A stretch of 41,771 nt of DNA from Alphaproteobacteria bacterium. Lineage in GTDB: Bacteria; Pseudomonadota; Alphaproteobacteria; Rickettsiales; JABCZZ01. The position numbers and the translations under genes are program-made. The notes beneath the pieces are model-generated. The model was not told where the DNA came from. It saw only the letters and a list, made by a program, of their open reading frames with translations, and did not search any database. The DNA is taken from positions 1 to 41,771 of the forward strand of contig JABDAT010000012.1 in the NCBI GenBank assembly GCA_013288985.1. Reading direction: 5' to 3'. Positions 9,125 through 33,773 of this stretch are shown here, piece after piece; position 1 is the first letter of the stretch; the number at the start of each line of letters is the position of its first letter.

Positions 9125-9213
9125 ATTTGCGCTATATGTAAAGTGATTCTTAACAGAAAATTATTATGCTAAATACCAAAAAACTCTTGGAAAAGGCCGC
9201 ATTTTAGGGCATA

Positions 9214-9627
9214 ATGAAGATGGTTAAACACTCGGGAACTTACAAGGAGGAAAAAACCATCACCAAGATCAAAACCACCTCTCAAGTGGCTAAACTGAAA
9301 CGCCTCATCGAAAAATCGCTCGATGCCGACAAAGCTGAAGATATTGTTGCCATCGACCTTGCCGGGAAAAGCAGCCTCGCTGATTACATGATTGTTGCTT
9401 CCGGAAATTCACAAAGACATATAACCACGCTCGCCGACCATCTCGCCGATAAGCTTAGAACCATTGGGTATGGCGCCGTGCCTACGGAAGGCAAGGAAAC
9501 AAGCGACTGGGTGGTGGTGGATGCGGGCGACATCATTGTCCATCTTTTTCACCCCGAAGCGCGCCGCCACTATAATCTGGAGAAGATGTGGGCTATGCCC
9601 ATGCCTGCGTTGGAAGCGGCGTTGTAG
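9214..9627 (+). CDS. rsfS: Ribosomal silencing factor RsfS (start uncertain)
   Basis: RsfS binds ribosomal protein uL14 and blocks subunit joining when nutrients fall. The family core is complete: DKAEDIVAIDLAGKSSLADYMIVASGNSQRHI, then GKETSDWVVVDAGDIIVHLFHPEAR and the terminal YNLEKMW. The first ATG gives 137 residues with only AGGG upstream. However, a perfect AAGGAGG lies at 9244-9250, inside this frame, with no ATG, GTG or TTG at the proper distance. The in-frame codon 8 nt after it is ATC (9259), which would give a 122-residue protein starting near the usual family start. Both options are open. It begins the plus-strand set rsfS-rlmH and diverges from envC. Confidence 0.93.
   Translation: MKMVKHSGTYKEEKTITKIKTTSQVAKLKRLIEKSLDADKAEDIVAIDLAGKSSLADYMIVASGNSQRHITTLADHLADKLRTIGYGAVPTEGKETSDWVVVDAGDIIVHLFHPEARRHYNLEKMWAMPMPALEAAL
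9244..9261 (+). promoter_or_regulatory. Strong Shine-Dalgarno followed by in-frame ATC in rsfS
   Basis: AAGGAGG (9244-9250) is a full anti-SD match. The spacer is 8 nt, and the next in-frame codon is ATC (codon 16 of the longer reading). No canonical start codon lies within reach in the rsfS frame. Initiation at ATC or ATT is rare but known, for example at infC. Confidence 0.5.
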
Positions 9628-24252: not shown

Positions 24253-26553
24253 ATGGGACTTATCAATTCGCTCGCAAGTCCGTTTACTAATTTACTTGCT
24301 GGCTTGTCGGCGGTATCCGGCAACCAAGGAAAGAATGCTCAACAGGCAGGTTCACAACAGTTCCTGGATACAAATTTTGCGCTATACGATTCTGTAAATC
24401 CCATTAACAGAAAACAACGCCGTGTCATCCAATCCAAAGGCAAGCACAGGACAGGGATTCGCGTACGCGGCAAATTATGCACTATTGAAGAAGCCAGTGT
24501 ATTGGCAATAAAAGAACAGAATCTTGAAAATTTCCAGGCAGCAATAGACATTTACGATCTTATTCTCGCCAAAGTTCCGGATTATGTCGGAGTCTATAAT
24601 AACCGGGGCCTTGCTCTGCAGGCAATGAAGCGGTTTGATGAAGCGCTCATAAGCTACGATAAGGCCATAGCGCTCAGGCCCGATCATGTGATAATTCATT
24701 ACAACCGGGGAGTTACGCTCCAAGCAATGGGCCGGTTTGACGAGGCGCTCATGAGCTACGATGACGCGGTAGCGCTTAAGCCGGATTTTGCCGAGGCCTA
24801 TAGCAATCGCGGTAATATTTTGCAGGATATGCAGCGGTTTGACGATGCGCTTATCAGTTACAGCAAAGCTATAGAGATCAGGCCTGATTTTGCCGAAGCC
24901 TATAATAACCAGGGCAATATTCTGCAGGCAATGAAGCAGTTTGACGCGGCGCTTGCCAGTTATGAAAAAGCCATCATGTTCAAGCCTGATTATGCAGAGG
25001 CCTATTATAATCGGGGCAATACTTTACAGGACGTCAGGCGGTATAATAATGCGCTCATAAGCTACGACAAAGCTGTGGCGCTCAAATCTGACTATGCAGA
25101 AGCATATAACAGCCGCGGCAATGCCCTGCAGGAAATGGAACGATTTGGCGATGCACTTATCAGTTACGACAAGGCGATAACCCTTAAGCATGATTTCGCC
25201 GAAGCCTATAATAACCGCGGCAATAGTTTGCAGGAAATGAGGCGGTTTGATGATGCGCTGGCAAGCTACGACAAAGCCATCGCGCTCAAGCCTGATTTTG
25301 CCGAAGCGTATAATAATTACGGCGCCACTTTAGAGAAAATGAAGCTCTATGACGATGCGCTGGCAAATTACGACAAAGCCATAACGCTTAAGCCGGCTTA
25401 TGCGGATGCGTATAATAACCGGGGCAATACGCTGGTAAGCAAAGGCGATATGCAGTCTGCAGAAATCATGTTCCTGAAGGCGATTGATCTGAATCCGGCA
25501 TTTTCCAATCCCTTATTCAGCCTGTCCAATATCCGCAAATACCATGCTGCAGATCATGCGGATATACATAATATTCACACATTGCTGGGTAAACCCGATA
25601 CTTCATTGCGCGACAGGGAATATCTTTATTTTGCCCTGGGCAAAATCTATGATGATTGCGGTCTCTATGATGACGCGTTTGAATGTTATCGTCAGGCGAA
25701 CCGGATTCGTAATAGTACGGCTGCCTATAATCCCGGCAAGGTAACGGAAACTACCAATAGCATTATTGATGTTTTCACTAAGGAATTCCTGGCAGCGCCA
25801 TGCGCGTTTGCCTCCTCCAGCCGCTCGCCTTTATTCATCGTCGGCATGCCGAGGTCGGGCACGACGCTTATGGCCAATATATTATCCAACCACAGTTCCA
25901 TCGCAACGGCGGGGGAATTGCCTACCATTACAGAATTTACCCTGCGTCTGCCCGAGCTTATCCAAAACGGAGAGCTGTATCCGCAGGCGGTAAAACACAT
26001 TACTCCCGCCATTGCTTCCGGATTGATCCAGGATTATGAAAAACGCCTGAGGCGCGATATTGGCATGGCGGTTCCTCATGTCATTGATAAATATCCGCTG
26101 AATTTCAGGCATCTGGGATTCATCTCCATGCTGTTTCCCGAAGCCAAAATCATTCACTGTACGCGTCATCCCCTGGATACCGGGCTTTCCAATTATTTTC
26201 AGCGTTTTGCCCTTGATTACGATTACGCATTTGATCTGCAGAATATCGGCCATTTCTACGGAGAATATTCCAGGGTTATGCAGCATTGGCAGAAAGTGCT
26301 GCCTTTAAAAATGATCGAAGTCAGCTATGAAGACATGATCATGAATACCGAACCCATGGTGCGCAAAACATTGGACTTCCTGGGGCTCGAATGGGACGAG
26401 CGCTGCCTGGCTCCGCACACCAACCCTTGCGCGGTGGAAACGGCGAGCAACTGGCAGGTGCGCCAACCTATCTATAAGCAATCGGTGGAACGCTGGCGCC
26501 ATTATGAGAAGCACCTCGCGCCTTTGAGCGAAAGGCTAAGTAATAAAGTTTAG
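24253..26553 (+). CDS. TPR-repeat sulfotransferase fusion protein
   Basis: The 766-residue protein joins an N-terminal TPR array to a C-terminal sulfotransferase. Nine 34-residue TPR units run from residue 116 to about 421, of the form NNRGNxLQxMxRFDDALxSYDKAIxLKPDFAEAY, with a degenerate unit before them. The sulfotransferase domain (about 525-765) has the 5'-phosphosulfate loop GMPRSGTTLMANIL (about 530-543) and the 3'-phosphate-binding segment IIHCTRHPLDTGLSNYFQRF. The enzyme class uses PAPS. TPR-sulfotransferase fusions are common in alphaproteobacteria, but acceptors are mostly unknown. AAGGAG sets the start, and a sigma-54-like promoter precedes it. The nearby GT61 enzyme and acylation cluster suggest a surface-glycan or protein target. 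Confidence 0.88.
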   Translation: MGLINSLASPFTNLLAGLSAVSGNQGKNAQQAGSQQFLDTNFALYDSVNPINRKQRRVIQSKGKHRTGIRVRGKLCTIEEASVLAIKEQNLENFQAAIDIYDLILAKVPDYVGVYNNRGLALQAMKRFDEALISYDKAIALRPDHVIIHYNRGVTLQAMGRFDEALMSYDDAVALKPDFAEAYSNRGNILQDMQRFDDALISYSKAIEIRPDFAEAYNNQGNILQAMKQFDAALASYEKAIMFKPDYAEAYYNRGNTLQDVRRYNNALISYDKAVALKSDYAEAYNSRGNALQEMERFGDALISYDKAITLKHDFAEAYNNRGNSLQEMRRFDDALASYDKAIALKPDFAEAYNNYGATLEKMKLYDDALANYDKAITLKPAYADAYNNRGNTLVSKGDMQSAEIMFLKAIDLNPAFSNPLFSLSNIRKYHAADHADIHNIHTLLGKPDTSLRDREYLYFALGKIYDDCGLYDDAFECYRQANRIRNSTAAYNPGKVTETTNSIIDVFTKEFLAAPCAFASSSRSPLFIVGMPRSGTTLMANILSNHSSIATAGELPTITEFTLRLPELIQNGELYPQAVKHITPAIASGLIQDYEKRLRRDIGMAVPHVIDKYPLNFRHLGFISMLFPEAKIIHCTRHPLDTGLSNYFQRFALDYDYAFDLQNIGHFYGEYSRVMQHWQKVLPLKMIEVSYEDMIMNTEPMVRKTLDFLGLEWDERCLAPHTNPCAVETASNWQVRQPIYKQSVERWRHYEKHLAPLSERLSNKV
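24598..25515 (+). repeat. Nine tandem 102-nt coding repeats (TPR units)
   Basis: The DNA repeats with a 102-nt period. Phrases such as GCCGAAGCCTATAATAACC and GGCAATA recur in each unit with moderate base divergence. Units 3-7 are the most alike. The repeats stay in frame and encode TPR helices, so unequal crossing-over could change the number of units between strains. Confidence 0.85.
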
Positions 26554-28322: not shown

Positions 28323-28399
28323 TGGTGCACCCGGCGGGATTTGAACCCACAACCCTTGCCTTCGGAGGGCAATACTCTATCCAATTGAGCTACGGGTGC
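28323..28399 (-). tRNA. tRNA-Arg (anticodon CCG)
   Basis: The 77-nt cloverleaf on the minus strand has acceptor GCACCCG/CGGGTGC, a D arm AGCTCAATTGGATAGAGT, anticodon stem TTGCC/GGCAA around loop CTCCGAA, T arm GTGGG/CCCGC with TTCAAAT, discriminator A and encoded CCA. The anticodon CCG reads CGG arginine codons. Confidence 0.97.
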
Positions 28400-28471: not shown

Positions 28472-28894
28472 CTATTTGGGTGGCAGCATGCCTGTGCGCA
28501 AAGTGCCTCTTACCACGGTTATATTATCTTGGTTAACTATTGTCGCTTTCGTTTCTATATAGCGCAAAAGACTGTGCACCGAGGTTATTTCACCCGTGAT
28601 GGTAAGCGTATCATTGGCAAATACAGGATGGTGAAAATGCATATCCACTCCTTGCGAGAGGGCATATTTCCCCGGCAGATAAAGCCCGGCAAGCTCAGAG
28701 AGAAAAGAACCCACCAGCAGGCCGTGGGCCAATTTGCCGGGATACCCTTGCTCGCGGGCGAAAGCATCATCGGTGTGAAGGGGGCTGACATCACCGCTTA
28801 GCTCTGCAAACTGCTTCATCATCGCCTCAGTGATGGTGCGCGTGAAGCGATGTGCCATACCTGCTTTAAGCTCTTCAATAGTATATGCGTGCAT
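28472..28894 (-). CDS. MaoC-like hot-dog dehydratase
   Basis: The 140-residue protein has the MaoC/R-specific enoyl-hydratase hot-dog fold. The hydratase motif with Asp and His is present in [17 protein letters not shown]. The next segment, [23 protein letters not shown], and the C-terminal strand [17 protein letters not shown] are typical. The enzyme class adds water to trans-2-enoyl thioesters or acts as a thioesterase-like relative. It follows the ACP gene after 5 nt as the last gene of the acylation cluster, so the substrate may be an ACP thioester rather than CoA; that is inference. tRNA-Arg(CCG) lies 73 nt downstream. Confidence 0.85.
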
Positions 28895-28899
28895 AAGTT

Positions 28900-29139
28900 C
28901 TAGGCCATTTTATCGGTTATGATATCCATGATGGCTCCTACATTGTGAAGCTGCGGATAGTGCGCAAGCGAAAAATGGAAATTAAATTCCTGCTCAATCG
29001 CCACTATAAGGCGGATATGGGTAAGCGAATCCCACTGCGCGATGTCATCGGCGGTCATTTCCCGCTTCAATACGATATCGCTGCGATCAAACACTTCATG
29101 AAAAATATGCGTGAGGCGCGTTTCCATGTTCATATTCAT
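28900..29139 (-). CDS. Dedicated acyl carrier protein
   Basis: The 79-residue protein is a stand-alone carrier domain. The phosphopantetheine serine is S38 in AQWDSLTHIRLIVAIEQEFNFHF, in place of the DSLxxVE motif of the fatty-acid ACP. The His at DSLTH and the sequence after it resemble carrier proteins of polyketide, capsule and dlt-like systems rather than AcpP. It overlaps the methyltransferase gene by 4 nt and precedes the MaoC gene by 5 nt. It therefore belongs to this operon and probably carries an acyl group to the MBOAT enzyme or a partner. Confidence 0.9.
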   Translation of the reverse strand: MNMNMETRLTHIFHEVFDRSDIVLKREMTADDIAQWDSLTHIRLIVAIEQEFNFHFSLAHYPQLHNVGAIMDIITDKMA

Positions 29140-30044
29140 GCTTTCTCAAGTAACGTTGCGTACAGTATATCGAGTTTATTTTTCTCTATATACTCTAACG
29201 GTTTATTCTCTGACGGCGCAATTAATTCCCGCAGGATGCGAAAGCCCGAATCATGAATAAGCGATCGAATGTCCTCTATAGTGTGAAACAGGTATACATG
29301 ATCAATGGCGGGGCAATTCGCGCAGGTAGAGAGATAAAGAAACCCGTCATCCGCCAGCAGCCCATGCAGAGTTTTTAAAATCTGCGAAGGGGATTCCACA
29401 TGTTCCAGCACCTCGCCCATGCCGATAAAATCATAAGGCTCTGCGGCAGCGTGGCAGGCAATATCGCTTTCGATAAAGCGCATCTGTTGCGTAGCGGGAC
29501 CATTTGTTGCAAGGAGCAGTTTTTGCGCAAATGCGATGGAAACAGGGCTGATATCGACAATATCAATCGTTGCTTTTGCTGTGATGTGGTTCGCTAAGAT
29601 ACTCGCAAAAATACCCAGCCCTGATCCCACTTCCAGAAACCGTCCGGAAGTGTTTTGCGCATTCACGCATTGTTTATAGAATTCCAGCAACTGATATTGT
29701 GCGGGCCAGAGGTAATGCGACACGGCCAGGCCCAGTATATGCGGCAGCATCTGCTGGCTATTGAGATAAATTTGTTCCTTCACTGCATTCTGGCTGGTGC
29801 AGGGATAACGGCCGGTGCGTGTGAATTGCACGCGGCAATAGGCCATTTCATCAAGCACGTGCAAATAGGCTGCTGCCAGTCCCGCAATCCCGCCAATCTC
29901 AGGTGTTTCCCATAAAAAATTATACGCAGTGAGAAAATTTCCTAATGCCGTGCGGGCCTCGGGAACGCGGGCAAAGAATGCGCCGATTTTTTTCTGCTGT
30001 CCAGGGTTTCTGGCATAAATATGAGAAAGAAATGTATCAATCAC
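29136..30044 (-). CDS. Class I SAM-dependent methyltransferase
   Basis: The 302-residue protein has a helical N-terminal half (about 1-125) and a Rossmann methyltransferase domain (about 130-290). Motif I is FLEVGSGLGIFASIL, followed by the acidic DIVDISPVSIAFAQK, motif II/III as YDFIGMGEVLEHVESP, and the late DDGFLYLSTCAN. The frame opens with GTG, preceded closely by AGG; a different start remains possible. Its 3' end overlaps the ACP start by 4 nt. The substrate cannot be told. In this operon it may methylate an acyl-ACP, a sugar or a peptide. Confidence 0.8.
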   Translation of the reverse strand: MIDTFLSHIYARNPGQQKKIGAFFARVPEARTALGNFLTAYNFLWETPEIGGIAGLAAAYLHVLDEMAYCRVQFTRTGRYPCTSQNAVKEQIYLNSQQMLPHILGLAVSHYLWPAQYQLLEFYKQCVNAQNTSGRFLEVGSGLGIFASILANHITAKATIDIVDISPVSIAFAQKLLLATNGPATQQMRFIESDIACHAAAEPYDFIGMGEVLEHVESPSQILKTLHGLLADDGFLYLSTCANCPAIDHVYLFHTIEDIRSLIHDSGFRILRELIAPSENKPLEYIEKNKLDILYATLLEKA

Positions 30045-30119
30045 CGCCTGTCATCCACACTATAATGCTGCGCGCTTAATGTATTCATTTTGGCGGGATA
30101 AAATATGATACGCATAATA

Positions 30120-31163
30120 CTAACGCAATATTTGCTGAATGACGATATCAGGCTTTTCCTGTGCGATAATATCCCAGTCTATGGTGTTGGCCCAGTGATA
30201 ATACGTGCGGCCAAAATGTTCCGCGACCCAAGGTTTCAATGGCTCAAACATAGACGATTGAAAGATAACAGCGTGTGGTAATGCACTATTGTCCTGCATG
30301 TAGATTTCATCGGCAGTATTATAATGCCACATCGGCAGAACAAGGTTTTTGTTGATGTCGATGCGTTGCGCCCGCTTAGAAGGCTTAAGGACATAAAAAG
30401 TATCTGTCTCCGTAAAAGGAAGCTTCTGTGTTATATTTTCAAGCGTAGGCGGTGCAGAGAATGTTCTTTCCTCCAACAAGAAATCTGACGCGTTTGATGC
30501 GTCTGGAATAGTCAATTTCTGGCTAAGCGCATGAATGAGCGTCTGGTACGCTGCAAAAGCGCCGGTATTATTCCAATGTATATCTGTAATGTAAAATGAA
30601 TGATGCTGCGCTTGTGAAAGGCGCATAGCGTTGAATAGATCGACAATCCATAGATCGGGAACCTGATGATGTAATGCGTCACTGTAATTATTGCGCACAA
30701 AAGCATTGCCGCATTTGAGGCTTTGCATGATTTCATTTTTGGTTGGAACAATCATCACCACATATTTTATATGCTGTTTGCCCAGCCGCGCCTGATTTTT
30801 GGCAAATTGCAATGCCTCCTGCGCAAAGTCATCCTTATAAAAGCCACTGTAATCACATAAAGGCGGCGGCTCTTTGGGCAGTATAAGCGAGGGGTGATGA
30901 GAATCCAGCCAATAGATGCGAATTGCAGTATCAATGGAAGCCAGCCAGTCACGCAATCCAAAATTCGTATCATAGTAATGCTGCAGCGCCAGCTTATATG
31001 CGTCAATATCTGTCGAAGCGCCGGAATAAACGGGCCATGATGCTTTTCCGCTCGGCATATGCAGTGATGCAGGGGGATGTATATCCGCCATCTGAACGGC
31101 AAGCGGCAGCCAGAGGCATAATAGAAACCCCACGAAAAAGATGATATTGCAGCGGGGCTTCAT
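30120..31163 (-). CDS. AlgX/AlgJ-like SGNH hydrolase-type acetyl/acyltransferase
   Basis: The 347-residue protein has an N-terminal membrane or signal anchor (about 5-24). An SGNH-like extracytoplasmic domain follows with the diagnostic YITDIHWNNTGAFAAY (D194, H196), the D-x-H site of AlgJ/AlgX/DHHW proteins. Other matches are YVVMIVPTKNEIM and an AVIFQSSMF strand near 305, where family members normally have GDS, so the serine context is altered. The gene starts 2 nt after the MBOAT gene. In alginate O-acetylation an MBOAT passes the acyl group across the membrane to such a protein, which suggests the same relay here. Confidence 0.78.
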   Translation of the reverse strand: MKPRCNIIFFVGFLLCLWLPLAVQMADIHPPASLHMPSGKASWPVYSGASTDIDAYKLALQHYYDTNFGLRDWLASIDTAIRIYWLDSHHPSLILPKEPPPLCDYSGFYKDDFAQEALQFAKNQARLGKQHIKYVVMIVPTKNEIMQSLKCGNAFVRNNYSDALHHQVPDLWIVDLFNAMRLSQAQHHSFYITDIHWNNTGAFAAYQTLIHALSQKLTIPDASNASDFLLEERTFSAPPTLENITQKLPFTETDTFYVLKPSKRAQRIDINKNLVLPMWHYNTADEIYMQDNSALPHAVIFQSSMFEPLKPWVAEHFGRTYYHWANTIDWDIIAQEKPDIVIQQILR

Positions 31164-31165
31164 AA

Positions 31166-32614
31166 TTAATATCGGAAATAAATAAAATTATCGATGGTTT
31201 GAGAAGCAATAGAAGCAGCGCTCAGAAAGAATATCAGCACCAATCCCGCATCACGGATAAAATGCAGCCGGCTTATGCATTGTGGATGCGCCCCATATTT
31301 TGCTTCGGCTTCCTTGAAGGCCAGCGTGAACAACGGGGTAGAAGCGAGAATGCCTGCAAAAAAACATAGATAAAGCTCTGCATCCGCAGGATAGGCAAAG
31401 ATATCCACATGATGCGACGAGCCCAGCATAATAGAGAGAAAACCCACTGCCTGCGCCATATTGTCTACACGGAACAGGACGCATAGCAGAATCCAGAGAA
31501 TTAGGGTGTAGAGATGCCTGAAGAAAATCGGGAGCCGTTTAATGGGGCTGCTGTAATAATTTTCTATAAAAACCACGCCGCCATTGATGATGCCAAAAAT
31601 AAGAAAATGCCATGCGGCGCCGTGCCATAATCCTATGGCCATAAATGTAAGAAATACAGGAAGTGCCTGTACCCAAATATGCAGATGTCCGCGGTGCGTA
31701 CGCATGCAATGCAGCGCCAGCGGTGTATAAAAATAGTCCCGCACCAGGCTGGTCAAACTGATATGCCAGCGCTTCCAGAGCTCTGTAAGAGAGGCGGCAA
31801 TATAAGGATAACGGAAATTTTCCTTGAAATGAAATCCGAATATGCGGGCGAGGCCAATGGCCATGTCGGAATATCCGGAAAAATCAAAATAAATTTGCAG
31901 GCTAAAGCAAACAGTTCCGAGCCATGCGGTATAGAAAGTGAGTGCTCCGGGAGGAAAGCGAAAAAGCAGATCCGTTACGAATCCGAACTGTTGTGCAAGT
32001 AATACTTTCTTGCCAAGCCCAATAATGAAACGGCGCGCGCCCTCTGCCACATCGCTGGCGCTAATGCTTCGGTGGTTAATCTGATCAATAATGTCTTCGT
32101 AACGGACAATAGGGCCCATAAGCAATTGAGGAAAAAAGCAGAAATACAGTGCCAATTTAAGAATATTTATCTGCGCGTTATTCTTGCGGGTATAAACATT
32201 GACGAGATAAATGATGGCATGAAAAGTAAAAAAAGATATTCCGAGAGGATAGTGTATCGGGGCAACAAAAATGCCTGCAGCACCCAGAAAATGAAGGACG
32301 ACATTAAGATTATCCGCCAGGAAATTAGTGTATTTGTACGCGGAAAGCATGAGAAGATTGCAGGCGACTCCTACAATAAATGCCGGTTTTCGTAAATGTT
32401 CCTGCAGGTGCTGTAATAACCGTCCGAGGAGATAATTAAACAGCACCGAGGCGAGTAACAGCAGAACATACAGTCCCTCTCCCCAGGCGTAAAATATCAG
32501 GCTTACGATTAATAAAAATACGTTTTGCAGGGTGGACGAACGCGGAAGCAGAAAGAAGCTTGTTAAAACCAGGGGCAGGAAGAAAAATAAAAAAAGGGGA
32601 GTGCTAAACAGCAT
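31166..32614 (-). CDS. MBOAT O-acyltransferase, AlgI/PatA-like
   Basis: The 482-residue integral membrane protein (from MLFSTPLFLFFFLPL) has the MBOAT marks. ALYFCFFPQLLMGPIVRYEDI is followed by the central YFDFSGYSDMAIGLARIFGFHFKENFRYPY, TELWKRWHISLTSLVRDYFY and the catalytic histidine in AIGLWHGAAWHFLIFG (H331). These are typical of AlgI, PatA and DltB-like enzymes that carry acyl groups through the membrane. A longer reading from a TTG 14 codons earlier adds unrelated residues and has no Shine-Dalgarno, so I use the ATG. The next gene is an SGNH protein, followed by a methyltransferase, an ACP and a MaoC protein. Confidence 0.93.
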   Translation of the reverse strand: MLFSTPLFLFFFLPLVLTSFFLLPRSSTLQNVFLLIVSLIFYAWGEGLYVLLLLASVLFNYLLGRLLQHLQEHLRKPAFIVGVACNLLMLSAYKYTNFLADNLNVVLHFLGAAGIFVAPIHYPLGISFFTFHAIIYLVNVYTRKNNAQINILKLALYFCFFPQLLMGPIVRYEDIIDQINHRSISASDVAEGARRFIIGLGKKVLLAQQFGFVTDLLFRFPPGALTFYTAWLGTVCFSLQIYFDFSGYSDMAIGLARIFGFHFKENFRYPYIAASLTELWKRWHISLTSLVRDYFYTPLALHCMRTHRGHLHIWVQALPVFLTFMAIGLWHGAAWHFLIFGIINGGVVFIENYYSSPIKRLPIFFRHLYTLILWILLCVLFRVDNMAQAVGFLSIMLGSSHHVDIFAYPADAELYLCFFAGILASTPLFTLAFKEAEAKYGAHPQCISRLHFIRDAGLVLIFFLSAASIASQTIDNFIYFRY

Positions 32615-32716: not shown

Positions 32717-33577
32717 CTACTGAAATTTGAATGACAATGCGCAGGTTGTGGAAGAACCGCTTCTGTATCCAACACAGTAGCTCATAGGTGTTGTGGTAAA
32801 GTCAATGCATGTGCTGCTATTGCATGCGCCGCTGGTATAGGGAGAATTAATCAAGTTAGCGCCGGATATATAATAGGATATCACAGTGCCGGAAAATGGA
32901 AGCCCATCATCAATCTTTGCATCCATGTTATAGGCCTGCCTGACAGTGAGTGTGCTAGAGCTTGTGGACATTTGTCCGGAAGTTATTGAATTAACCGTTG
33001 CCAAACCAAAATAATTCCCACTCAGGCCCGCAATTCCAACACTTGCCGTCTGATTATATTCATATACATATATGTAAGCATTGGCGCCTACTTTTGCCGC
33101 AGGCATATAATTAGCAATCTGGGTTGAGCTGGCGGTTGTGGTACCCGCTTCTGTTGCTGTTATAAAACTGCCGTCGATTAAACCGCCGGCAACAGGGCTG
33201 CTTAGATCGACCCAGAACATTCCTGTCTCACCCTGGCCCTGCTGCAGTTTATGGGCTATGGTATCGGTGGCGCCGCCATCTAACACGCCATTGCTGTCAC
33301 CCTGGCCGCTCCCTCCGCGGGCCGTAGAGAAACCAAAGGTGGTGGCAGTGCTTGAATCCATATCTCCAGGCAATGCGTTATACTTCACGCGAAAGGTATT
33401 AACTGCTCTGTTGAATTTTTCAAGTTGAGTAATTTGAGCGCGAACAGCAGCGGCCTGAATGAGATCCTGACCAACCAGTATGCCGCCGACGATAAGCCCG
33501 ATGATTACCATCACAATCGAAAGTTCGATAAGGGTAAAACCACCTTGTTTAGTATTCCGATAGCTTTGTAATAACAT
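32717..33577 (-). CDS. Type IV pilin/pseudopilin-like prepilin
   Basis: The product carries the class III signal KQGGFTLIELSIVMVIIGLIVGGILVGQ, with the prepilin peptidase site between G and F and the N-methylated Phe and Glu5 in place. A helix follows (AAAVRAQITQLEKFNRAVNTF), then YNALPGDM and a Ser/Thr/Gly-rich C-terminal domain with two cysteine pairs (CNSSTC, then C...C near the end). I chose the ATG giving a 13-residue leader (MLLQSYRNTKQGG) because the upstream small ORF stops one nt before it. A start 8 codons earlier is also open. No other pilus gene is in view, so its machinery lies elsewhere. Confidence 0.85.
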   Translation of the reverse strand: MLLQSYRNTKQGGFTLIELSIVMVIIGLIVGGILVGQDLIQAAAVRAQITQLEKFNRAVNTFRVKYNALPGDMDSSTATTFGFSTARGGSGQGDSNGVLDGGATDTIAHKLQQGQGETGMFWVDLSSPVAGGLIDGSFITATEAGTTTASSTQIANYMPAAKVGANAYIYVYEYNQTASVGIAGLSGNYFGLATVNSITSGQMSTSSSTLTVRQAYNMDAKIDDGLPFSGTVISYYISGANLINSPYTSGACNSSTCIDFTTTPMSYCVGYRSGSSTTCALSFKFQ

Positions 33578-33578
33578 A

Positions 33579-33773
33579 CTATTTGCTGTTAACGGCTTCA
33601 TCTATAACGATACTTCTATCATGTTCAAATGCAAGCAATTTAAAATCATAATACATGGTGTTACTATCTTTACAGCCGCTCTGTACCATTTTTACAGCTT
33701 TTGCTGTAGCGAGATCGCATTCTTTGCCGCCATATTCGACAAAGAAACAGAAAGCTGTTGATTCATAGGGCAT
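33579..33773 (-). CDS. Small ORF coupled to the prepilin gene
   Basis: A 64-residue frame ends in TAG one nt before the prepilin ATG (TAG-T-ATG). The product begins [19 protein letters not shown] and contains three cysteines, with no signal peptide and no similarity I recognise. It has no clear Shine-Dalgarno. The near-perfect abutment with a gene that itself lacks a Shine-Dalgarno supports translational coupling. It starts 67 nt from the divergent sucB. It could be a real small protein or only a coupling leader. Confidence 0.45.

What the first reader, a model, noticed from the sequence alone, without database searches (positions are those of the whole stretch)
28472..32614. Five-gene acylation cluster: MBOAT, SGNH, methyltransferase, ACP, MaoC
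An AlgI/DltB-like MBOAT and an AlgX/AlgJ-like SGNH protein lie on one strand with a dedicated acyl carrier protein, a methyltransferase and a MaoC hot-dog protein. The genes are separated by -4 to 75 nt. MBOAT plus SGNH is the alginate-acetylation logic; MBOAT plus carrier protein is the dlt logic. The combination with a MaoC protein suggests a non-acetate acyl group built or modified on the ACP and moved to a surface glycan or protein. No adenylation enzyme is in view, so the acyl source is unexplained.
Basis: partly seen in the sequence, partly recalled or inferred. Interest (0 to 1): 0.65.

Follow-up and report, generated by a model that had tools for sequence, protein, structure and literature searches.

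The report
Carrier-bound acyl group surface-decoration cassette
The five genes are real and belong to a widespread, apparently undescribed cassette that probably builds a small methylated acid from a glycolysis intermediate on a dedicated carrier protein and passes it through the membrane onto a cell-surface sugar.

Summary
In detail: MBOAT, AlgX/AlgJ-like SGNH, methyltransferase (MT), acyl carrier protein (ACP) and MaoC lie on the minus strand, 28472-32614, with junctions of -4 to +75 nt. The 'unexplained acyl source' now has a strong candidate. Among 86 distinct loci with this MT family, 74 also carry FkbH (the glyceryl-ACP-forming enzyme of polyketide pathways) within 6 kb, 74 a dedicated ACP and 57 an MBOAT. 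In 356 genomes of the order, separate MT, FkbH and ACP searches hit exactly the same six, including this one. Here the only FkbH found is unlinked (contig 38) and 65% identical to a cassette FkbH.

MaoC is not random. It occupies a slot that in 65 loci holds a methylmalonyl-CoA-epimerase-like VOC protein. The two never co-occur (0 of 86), and the MT tree needs several independent changes, so they look like interchangeable tailoring enzymes on the ACP.

Best reading: FkbH makes glyceryl-ACP, MT and MaoC tailor it, and MBOAT plus SGNH move the acyl group to a surface acceptor. No step is shown biochemically. Main doubt: the window's MBOAT/SGNH resemble ACP-free pairs and might be an ordinary O-acetylation pair. 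Acyl structure and acceptor are unknown.

The parts
31166..32614 (-). MBOAT membrane O-acyltransferase (ATG start at 32614; an upstream TTG would extend it to 32656)
   Evidence: PF03062, 72 bits; best solved relatives DltB 6bug/8jem, E 8e-22, with both histidine motifs WxRWH and GxWHG aligned; the only MBOAT found in the genome
30120..31163 (-). AlgX/AlgJ/PatB-like SGNH acyltransferase partner, with an N-terminal membrane or signal segment
   Evidence: PF16822, 46 bits; a low-confidence model still retrieves PatB1, AlgJ and AlgX; D194, H196 (TDxHWN motif) and S304 are invariant against three relatives (positions there are one lower because the start Met was left out)
29136..30044 (-). Class I SAM-dependent methyltransferase, the marker gene of the cassette
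   Evidence: Methyltransf_23; AlphaFold pLDDT 96, Rossmann methyltransferase fold; 184 related loci in GTDB genomes
28900..29139 (-). Dedicated acyl carrier protein, phosphopantetheine site DSL (Ser38)
   Evidence: 2LML (GmACP3 type) E 4e-16; conserved next to MT and FkbH; distinct from the fatty-acid ACP
28472..28894 (-). MaoC/PhaJ-like hot-dog (de)hydratase in the cassette's VOC-or-MaoC slot
   Evidence: PF01575, 63 bits; closest solved relative (R)-specific enoyl-CoA hydratase 1IQ6 with the catalytic Asp (D35) and His (H40) kept

Best explanation
The window holds most of a cassette that makes a short hydroxy- or methoxy-acyl group on a dedicated ACP and attaches it to a surface molecule. 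Step 1 (inferred from family and co-occurrence): the unlinked FkbH on contig C38 takes 1,3-bisphosphoglycerate and loads a glyceryl group on the ACP at 28900-29139. Step 2 (inferred): the methyltransferase methylates the carrier-bound group, most simply on a hydroxyl. Step 3 (inferred): MaoC acts at the alpha/beta carbons of the thioester, in the slot where most relatives use an epimerase-like VOC protein. Step 4 (inferred): the MBOAT takes the finished acyl group from the ACP across the inner membrane, as DltB does from DltC. Step 5 (inferred): the SGNH protein transfers it to a hydroxyl of a surface glycan or protein. The gene set, its conservation, the FkbH link and the VOC/MaoC exchange are shown here; no enzymatic step is.
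For: FkbH lies within 6 kb of the MT in 74 of 86 distinct loci, ACP in 74, MBOAT in 57 (88 rows with two duplicate pairs). The MT search, the FkbH search and the ACP search each return exactly the same 6 of 356 genomes of the order (chance for one such coincidence about 4e-13). The window genome has one FkbH (283 bits, cut-off 147), 65% identical to the cassette FkbH of L059. MaoC and VOC are never together (0 of 86; hypergeometric 2e-5), and the MaoC label needs 6 changes on the MT tree, at least 4 forced by well-supported branches, so the exchange is recurrent. In 5 of 7 MaoC loci a FabG-like SDR is the direct neighbour of MaoC, which fits chemistry on an acyl thioester. FkbH enzymes forming glyceryl-ACP, followed by an O-methyltransferase, are described for polyketide extender units (PMC7489565). 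The ACP resembles GmACP3, whose published title proposes a role in lipopolysaccharide synthesis (cited in PMC4847154). MBOAT and SGNH catalytic motifs are intact.
Against: FkbH is not linked here; it sits on an 8-kb contig of a 61%-complete bin, so mis-binning is possible. The window's MBOAT and SGNH are closest to MBOAT/SGNH pairs in family f15 that have no ACP, MT or FkbH nearby. The window lacks the SDR that accompanies MaoC in 5 of the 6 other MaoC loci. The MT fold does not tell O- from C- or N-methylation. No acceptor glycan locus is visible.
Confidence: 0.6

Rival explanations
1. Two neighbouring but separate systems: MBOAT plus SGNH form an ordinary AlgI/AlgX- or PatA/PatB-type O-acetylation pair fed from acetyl-CoA, while MT, ACP and MaoC with FkbH make an acyl group that is used elsewhere.
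For: The window MBOAT groups with ACP-free MBOAT/AlgX-like pairs L033-L035 (8-row set at 96 support); the SGNH has its relatives in the same ACP-free family f15; the junction between SGNH and MT is the widest, 75 nt.
Against: MBOAT is a partner of this MT/ACP core in 57 of 86 loci, often with an SGNH-like gene next to it. Cassette MBOATs are themselves scattered over several clades, including the same superclade, so partner exchange is common. It is the only MBOAT found in this genome, and all five genes run in one direction.
Confidence: 0.25
2. MaoC is a hydratase that makes an (R)-3-hydroxyacyl group (for example 3-hydroxybutyryl) from the enoyl pool on the ACP; FkbH serves something else.
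For: The closest solved relative is the PhaJ-type (R)-specific enoyl-CoA hydratase with its catalytic pair kept. FkbH is unlinked here.
Against: FkbH, MT and ACP co-occur perfectly in the order, and six other MaoC loci have FkbH beside the same MT. The MaoC slot is filled by an epimerase-like VOC elsewhere, which has no place in a hydroxybutyryl route.
Confidence: 0.08
3. A lactyl variant: MaoC dehydrates glyceryl-ACP to pyruvyl-ACP, a reductase gives lactyl-ACP, and the exported group is lactyl or 2-methoxypropionyl. (This differs from the best explanation only in the acyl product, so the confidences overlap.)
For: Five of seven MaoC loci carry a FabG-like SDR directly beside MaoC; glyceryl thioester is a beta-hydroxyacyl thioester, the normal substrate class of MaoC dehydratases (established chemistry).
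Against: No SDR is linked in the window or L085; L085's MaoC lacks the catalytic Asp. Very similar MTs work with VOC and without an SDR, which suggests that the methylated substrate does not change.
Confidence: 0.2

Closest known systems
FkbH/ACP/O-methyltransferase modules for glyceryl- and methoxymalonyl-ACP in polyketide pathways (FK520, tetronates, tetromadurin; PMC7489565)
   Same: FkbH-family enzyme, stand-alone ACP and a methyltransferase in one gene group; glyceryl group taken from 1,3-bisphosphoglycerate
   Different: No polyketide synthase; the two dehydrogenases of the methoxymalonyl route do not appear among the recurrent neighbours; a VOC or MaoC protein, an MBOAT and often an SGNH-like protein are added
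Dlt system (DltA-DltB-DltC-DltD)
   Same: MBOAT partnered by a dedicated carrier protein and an extracytoplasmic SGNH-type protein; the MBOAT's best solved relative is DltB
   Different: No DltA-type adenylation gene in the cluster; carrier loading is assigned to FkbH; MT and MaoC tailor the group
AlgI/AlgJ/AlgX and PatA/PatB O-acetylation
   Same: MBOAT plus SGNH pair; the SGNH model retrieves PatB1, AlgJ and AlgX
   Different: Those systems have no ACP, MT or MaoC; no alginate or peptidoglycan-acetylation gene set lies in the window
GmACP3 (PDB 2LML), specialised ACP of Geobacter metallireducens with a proposed role in lipopolysaccharide synthesis
   Same: Closest solved relative of the ACP over 72 residues, E 4e-16
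   Different: Only the carrier protein was studied; its partners and acyl group were not available to check here
Campylobacter jejuni di-O-methylglyceric acid on flagellin pseudaminic acid (PMC3068675)
   Same: A methylated glyceric acid on a surface sugar is the kind of product this cassette could make
   Different: Genes for making that acid are not assigned in the papers read; my recollection that an ACP, a SAM-methyltransferase and a HAD-IIIC gene lie in that locus (Cj1299-Cj1302) was not tested

Membership tests
FkbH-MT-ACP acylation cassette (defined here) | Methyltransferase of this family | tested here: met
   57% and 52% identical to cassette MTs L073 and L050, 100-support clade
FkbH-MT-ACP acylation cassette (defined here) | Dedicated ACP with DSL serine next to the MT | tested here: met
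   Ser38; best matches are cassette ACPs
FkbH-MT-ACP acylation cassette (defined here) | FkbH enzyme | tested here: met
   Present in the genome over the TIGR01686 cut-off but on another contig
FkbH-MT-ACP acylation cassette (defined here) | VOC or MaoC protein in the core | tested here: met
   MaoC next to ACP, catalytic D35/H40 kept
FkbH-MT-ACP acylation cassette (defined here) | MBOAT with extracytoplasmic SGNH-like partner that uses the ACP | tested here: inconclusive
   Both genes are present and adjacent, but they are phylogenetically closest to ACP-free pairs; donor use not testable
Dlt D-alanylation | DltA adenylation enzyme in the cluster | tested here: not met
   No AMP-binding gene in the window's cluster; three AMP-binding genes lie on other contigs and were not typed
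Dlt D-alanylation | DltB equivalog score | tested here: not met
   144 bits against a cut-off of 375; ACP-free relatives score as high
Alginate O-acetylation (AlgI/J/F/X) | Alginate synthesis genes alongside | tested here: not met
   None among the window proteins scanned
Methoxymalonyl-ACP pathway | Two dehydrogenases plus polyketide synthase | tested here: not met
   Neither in the window nor among the recurrent neighbours of 88 loci
PhaJ (R)-specific hydratase | Catalytic Asp/His pair | tested here: met
   Aligned with 1IQ6
PhaJ (R)-specific hydratase | Enoyl-CoA substrate | not testable with these tools
   Needs an enzyme assay

The most novel reading that the evidence does not exclude
A widespread and undescribed pathway draws the glycolytic intermediate 1,3-bisphosphoglycerate, builds a methylated three-carbon acyl group on a dedicated ACP and exports it by MBOAT/SGNH onto surface glycans, with a VOC epimerase-like enzyme and a MaoC (de)hydratase as repeatedly exchanged, mutually exclusive tailoring enzymes.
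Probability: 0.5. Interest if true: 0.75.

Novelty: new variant of a known kind. Interest (0 to 1): 0.6.

Why it matters
Surface glycans carry many small acyl groups whose makers are unknown. This cassette joins the glyceryl-ACP chemistry of polyketide pathways to a Dlt/Alg-type membrane export pair in many phyla (among the loci: Pseudomonadota, Bacteroidota, Planctomycetota, Bacillota, Actinomycetota, Spirochaetota and others). It gives a gene set that can be knocked out or reconstituted to test where methylated glyceric-acid decorations come from. The repeated VOC/MaoC exchange is a natural experiment on how two unrelated folds can fill one slot in a pathway.

Tried and rejected
(1) 'The ACP is the cell's only one': rejected, a normal fatty-acid ACP exists. 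(2) 'The five-gene order is conserved': rejected; only the content is. (3) DltB score as a sign of ACP use: rejected, ACP-free MBOATs score equally. (4) Viral-contig search for the MT: nothing. (5) Plasmid records: only two, Tistrella and Paroceanicella, both with FkbH, ACP and MT. (6) The fold search with the MT model gave generic Rossmann methyltransferases, including O-, N- and C-methylating ones, so the methylated atom stays open; the N-terminal helical part is barely covered. (7) The SGNH model was poor (pLDDT 55, four sequences), though its matches were consistent. (8) Literature: no paper in the library joins FkbH or an ACP with an MBOAT/SGNH surface-acylation pair; this is absence from one open-access library only. 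(9) Shewanella sfmABCDE, considered as a parallel, has a methyltransferase and a reductase but no FkbH or ACP in the description read. (10) The L108 MaoC hit (23 bits, opposite strand) was discarded as noise.

Full report
Observation. The five ORFs exist as described: MBOAT 31166-32614, SGNH 30120-31163, MT 29136-30044, ACP 28900-29139, MaoC 28472-28894, all on the minus strand, with junctions of 2, 75, -4 and 5 nt. A prepilin-like gene lies about 100 nt upstream and a tRNA-Arg directly downstream. The window is a whole contig (C12) of a 1.3-Mb, 62-contig assembly estimated 61% complete.

The ACP is dedicated. An ordinary ACP lies between FabG- and FabF-like genes on contig C1; the two share only 26 aligned residues. 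The closest solved relative of the window ACP is 2LML, the specialised GmACP3 of Geobacter, whose structure paper (seen here only as a reference in PMC4847154) proposes a role in lipopolysaccharide synthesis.

The missing enzyme. Relatives in the same order that carry the MT showed a FkbH gene, with ACP and MBOAT, beside it. The window's own genome has one FkbH, on contig C38 (283 bits against a cut-off of 147), 65% identical over 628 residues to the cassette FkbH of L059. In 356 genomes of the order, the MT, FkbH and ACP searches each returned G000, G008, G011, G129, G137 and G142 and nothing else.

Breadth. A scan of GTDB genomes with an alignment of eight MTs found 184 related loci, of which the best 80 were kept. 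With eight further loci, including the window, that makes 88 rows and 86 distinct loci (L068 and L073 are the same contig; L059 and L128 match in contig length and content). Within 6 kb of the MT: ACP 74, FkbH 74, VOC 65, MBOAT 57, MaoC 7. Several loci stop at contig ends, so these are lower bounds. Twenty-four MBOAT loci of the same order without the MT held none of MT, ACP, FkbH, VOC or MaoC. Frequent cassettes read FkbH-MT-ACP-VOC-MBOAT or, in the MaoC form, FkbH-MT-ACP-MaoC-SDR-MBOAT followed by an SGNH-like gene (L101). Tistrella mobilis plasmid pTM1 and Paroceanicella profunda plasmid pD4M1C carry cassettes in annotated records.

The VOC/MaoC slot. The VOC proteins match Glyoxalase_4 and, below cut-off, methylmalonyl-CoA epimerase. 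MaoC-containing loci never contain the VOC: 0 of 86, hypergeometric 2e-5, which treats loci as independent and is therefore only a guide. On the MT tree the seven MaoC rows need six changes, at least four forced by well-supported branches; the window's MT sits in a fully supported three-row clade with one VOC locus and one locus with neither. The exchange has therefore happened repeatedly. Both folds can take a proton from the alpha carbon of an acyl thioester, so both plausibly act on the carrier-bound group; whether they give the same product is open. Five of the seven MaoC loci have a FabG-like SDR directly beside MaoC, the window and L085 do not. The window MaoC keeps the catalytic Asp and His of PhaJ-type hydratases; in L085 the Asp is replaced.

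Export pair. The MBOAT aligns with DltB over its catalytic half, both histidine motifs included; it is the only MBOAT found in this assembly. The SGNH protein matches PF16822; Asp, His and Ser of the expected triad are invariant in four sequences, and a low-confidence model still retrieves PatB1, AlgJ and AlgX. But on a quick tree the window MBOAT groups with MBOATs that pair with AlgX-like SGNH genes and have no ACP nearby, and the SGNH has its relatives in the same family. Cassette MBOATs fall in several clades, so partners are exchanged often. That this MBOAT accepts the acyl group from this ACP is likely from gene neighbourhood, not shown.

Methyltransferase. The AlphaFold model is confident (pLDDT 96) and is a class I Rossmann methyltransferase with about 80 N-terminal residues of helices that the matches hardly cover. 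The fold does not say which atom is methylated.

What is known. The parts belong to known families; the combination of glyceryl-ACP chemistry with an MBOAT/SGNH surface pair was not found in the searchable literature. Methylated glyceric acid is known on a bacterial surface sugar: di-O-methylglyceric acid on pseudaminic acid of Campylobacter jejuni flagellin (PMC3068675). That the C. jejuni locus carries an ACP, a methyltransferase and a HAD-IIIC gene is recollection and was not tested.

Verdict. The finding is real and better than described: a member of a broad cassette, in a rare MaoC form with FkbH unlinked. Mechanism confidence 0.6; the acyl structure and the acceptor remain unknown.

Noticed in passing
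28323-28399, minus strand: A tRNA-Arg (CCG) gene lies directly downstream of MaoC; tRNA genes are common integration sites, so the cassette may have been acquired as an island. No integrase was seen near it.
   Followed up: partly
24253-26553, plus strand: A 766-residue protein joins about ten TPR repeats to a C-terminal Sulfotransfer_3 domain, another possible surface- or protein-modifying enzyme.
   Followed up: no
32717-33601, minus strand: A prepilin-like protein (N_methyl motif) lies on the same strand about 100 nt upstream of the MBOAT; it could be an acceptor candidate, but nothing here tests this.
   Followed up: no
L085:13879-14283 and 9127-9561: One Bacteroidota locus has two MaoC genes; the one in the cassette has lost the catalytic Asp (DAHAAIH), the other keeps it.
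   Followed up: partly
L090:820-11741: A Saprospiraceae locus carries three MBOATs and two ACPs around one MT and one FkbH, which suggests duplicated export arms for one acyl group.
   Followed up: no
L076, L080, L117, L146, L148: Five cassettes have an AMP-ligase gene within 7 kb of the MT, so some relatives may use or add another acyl source.
   Followed up: no
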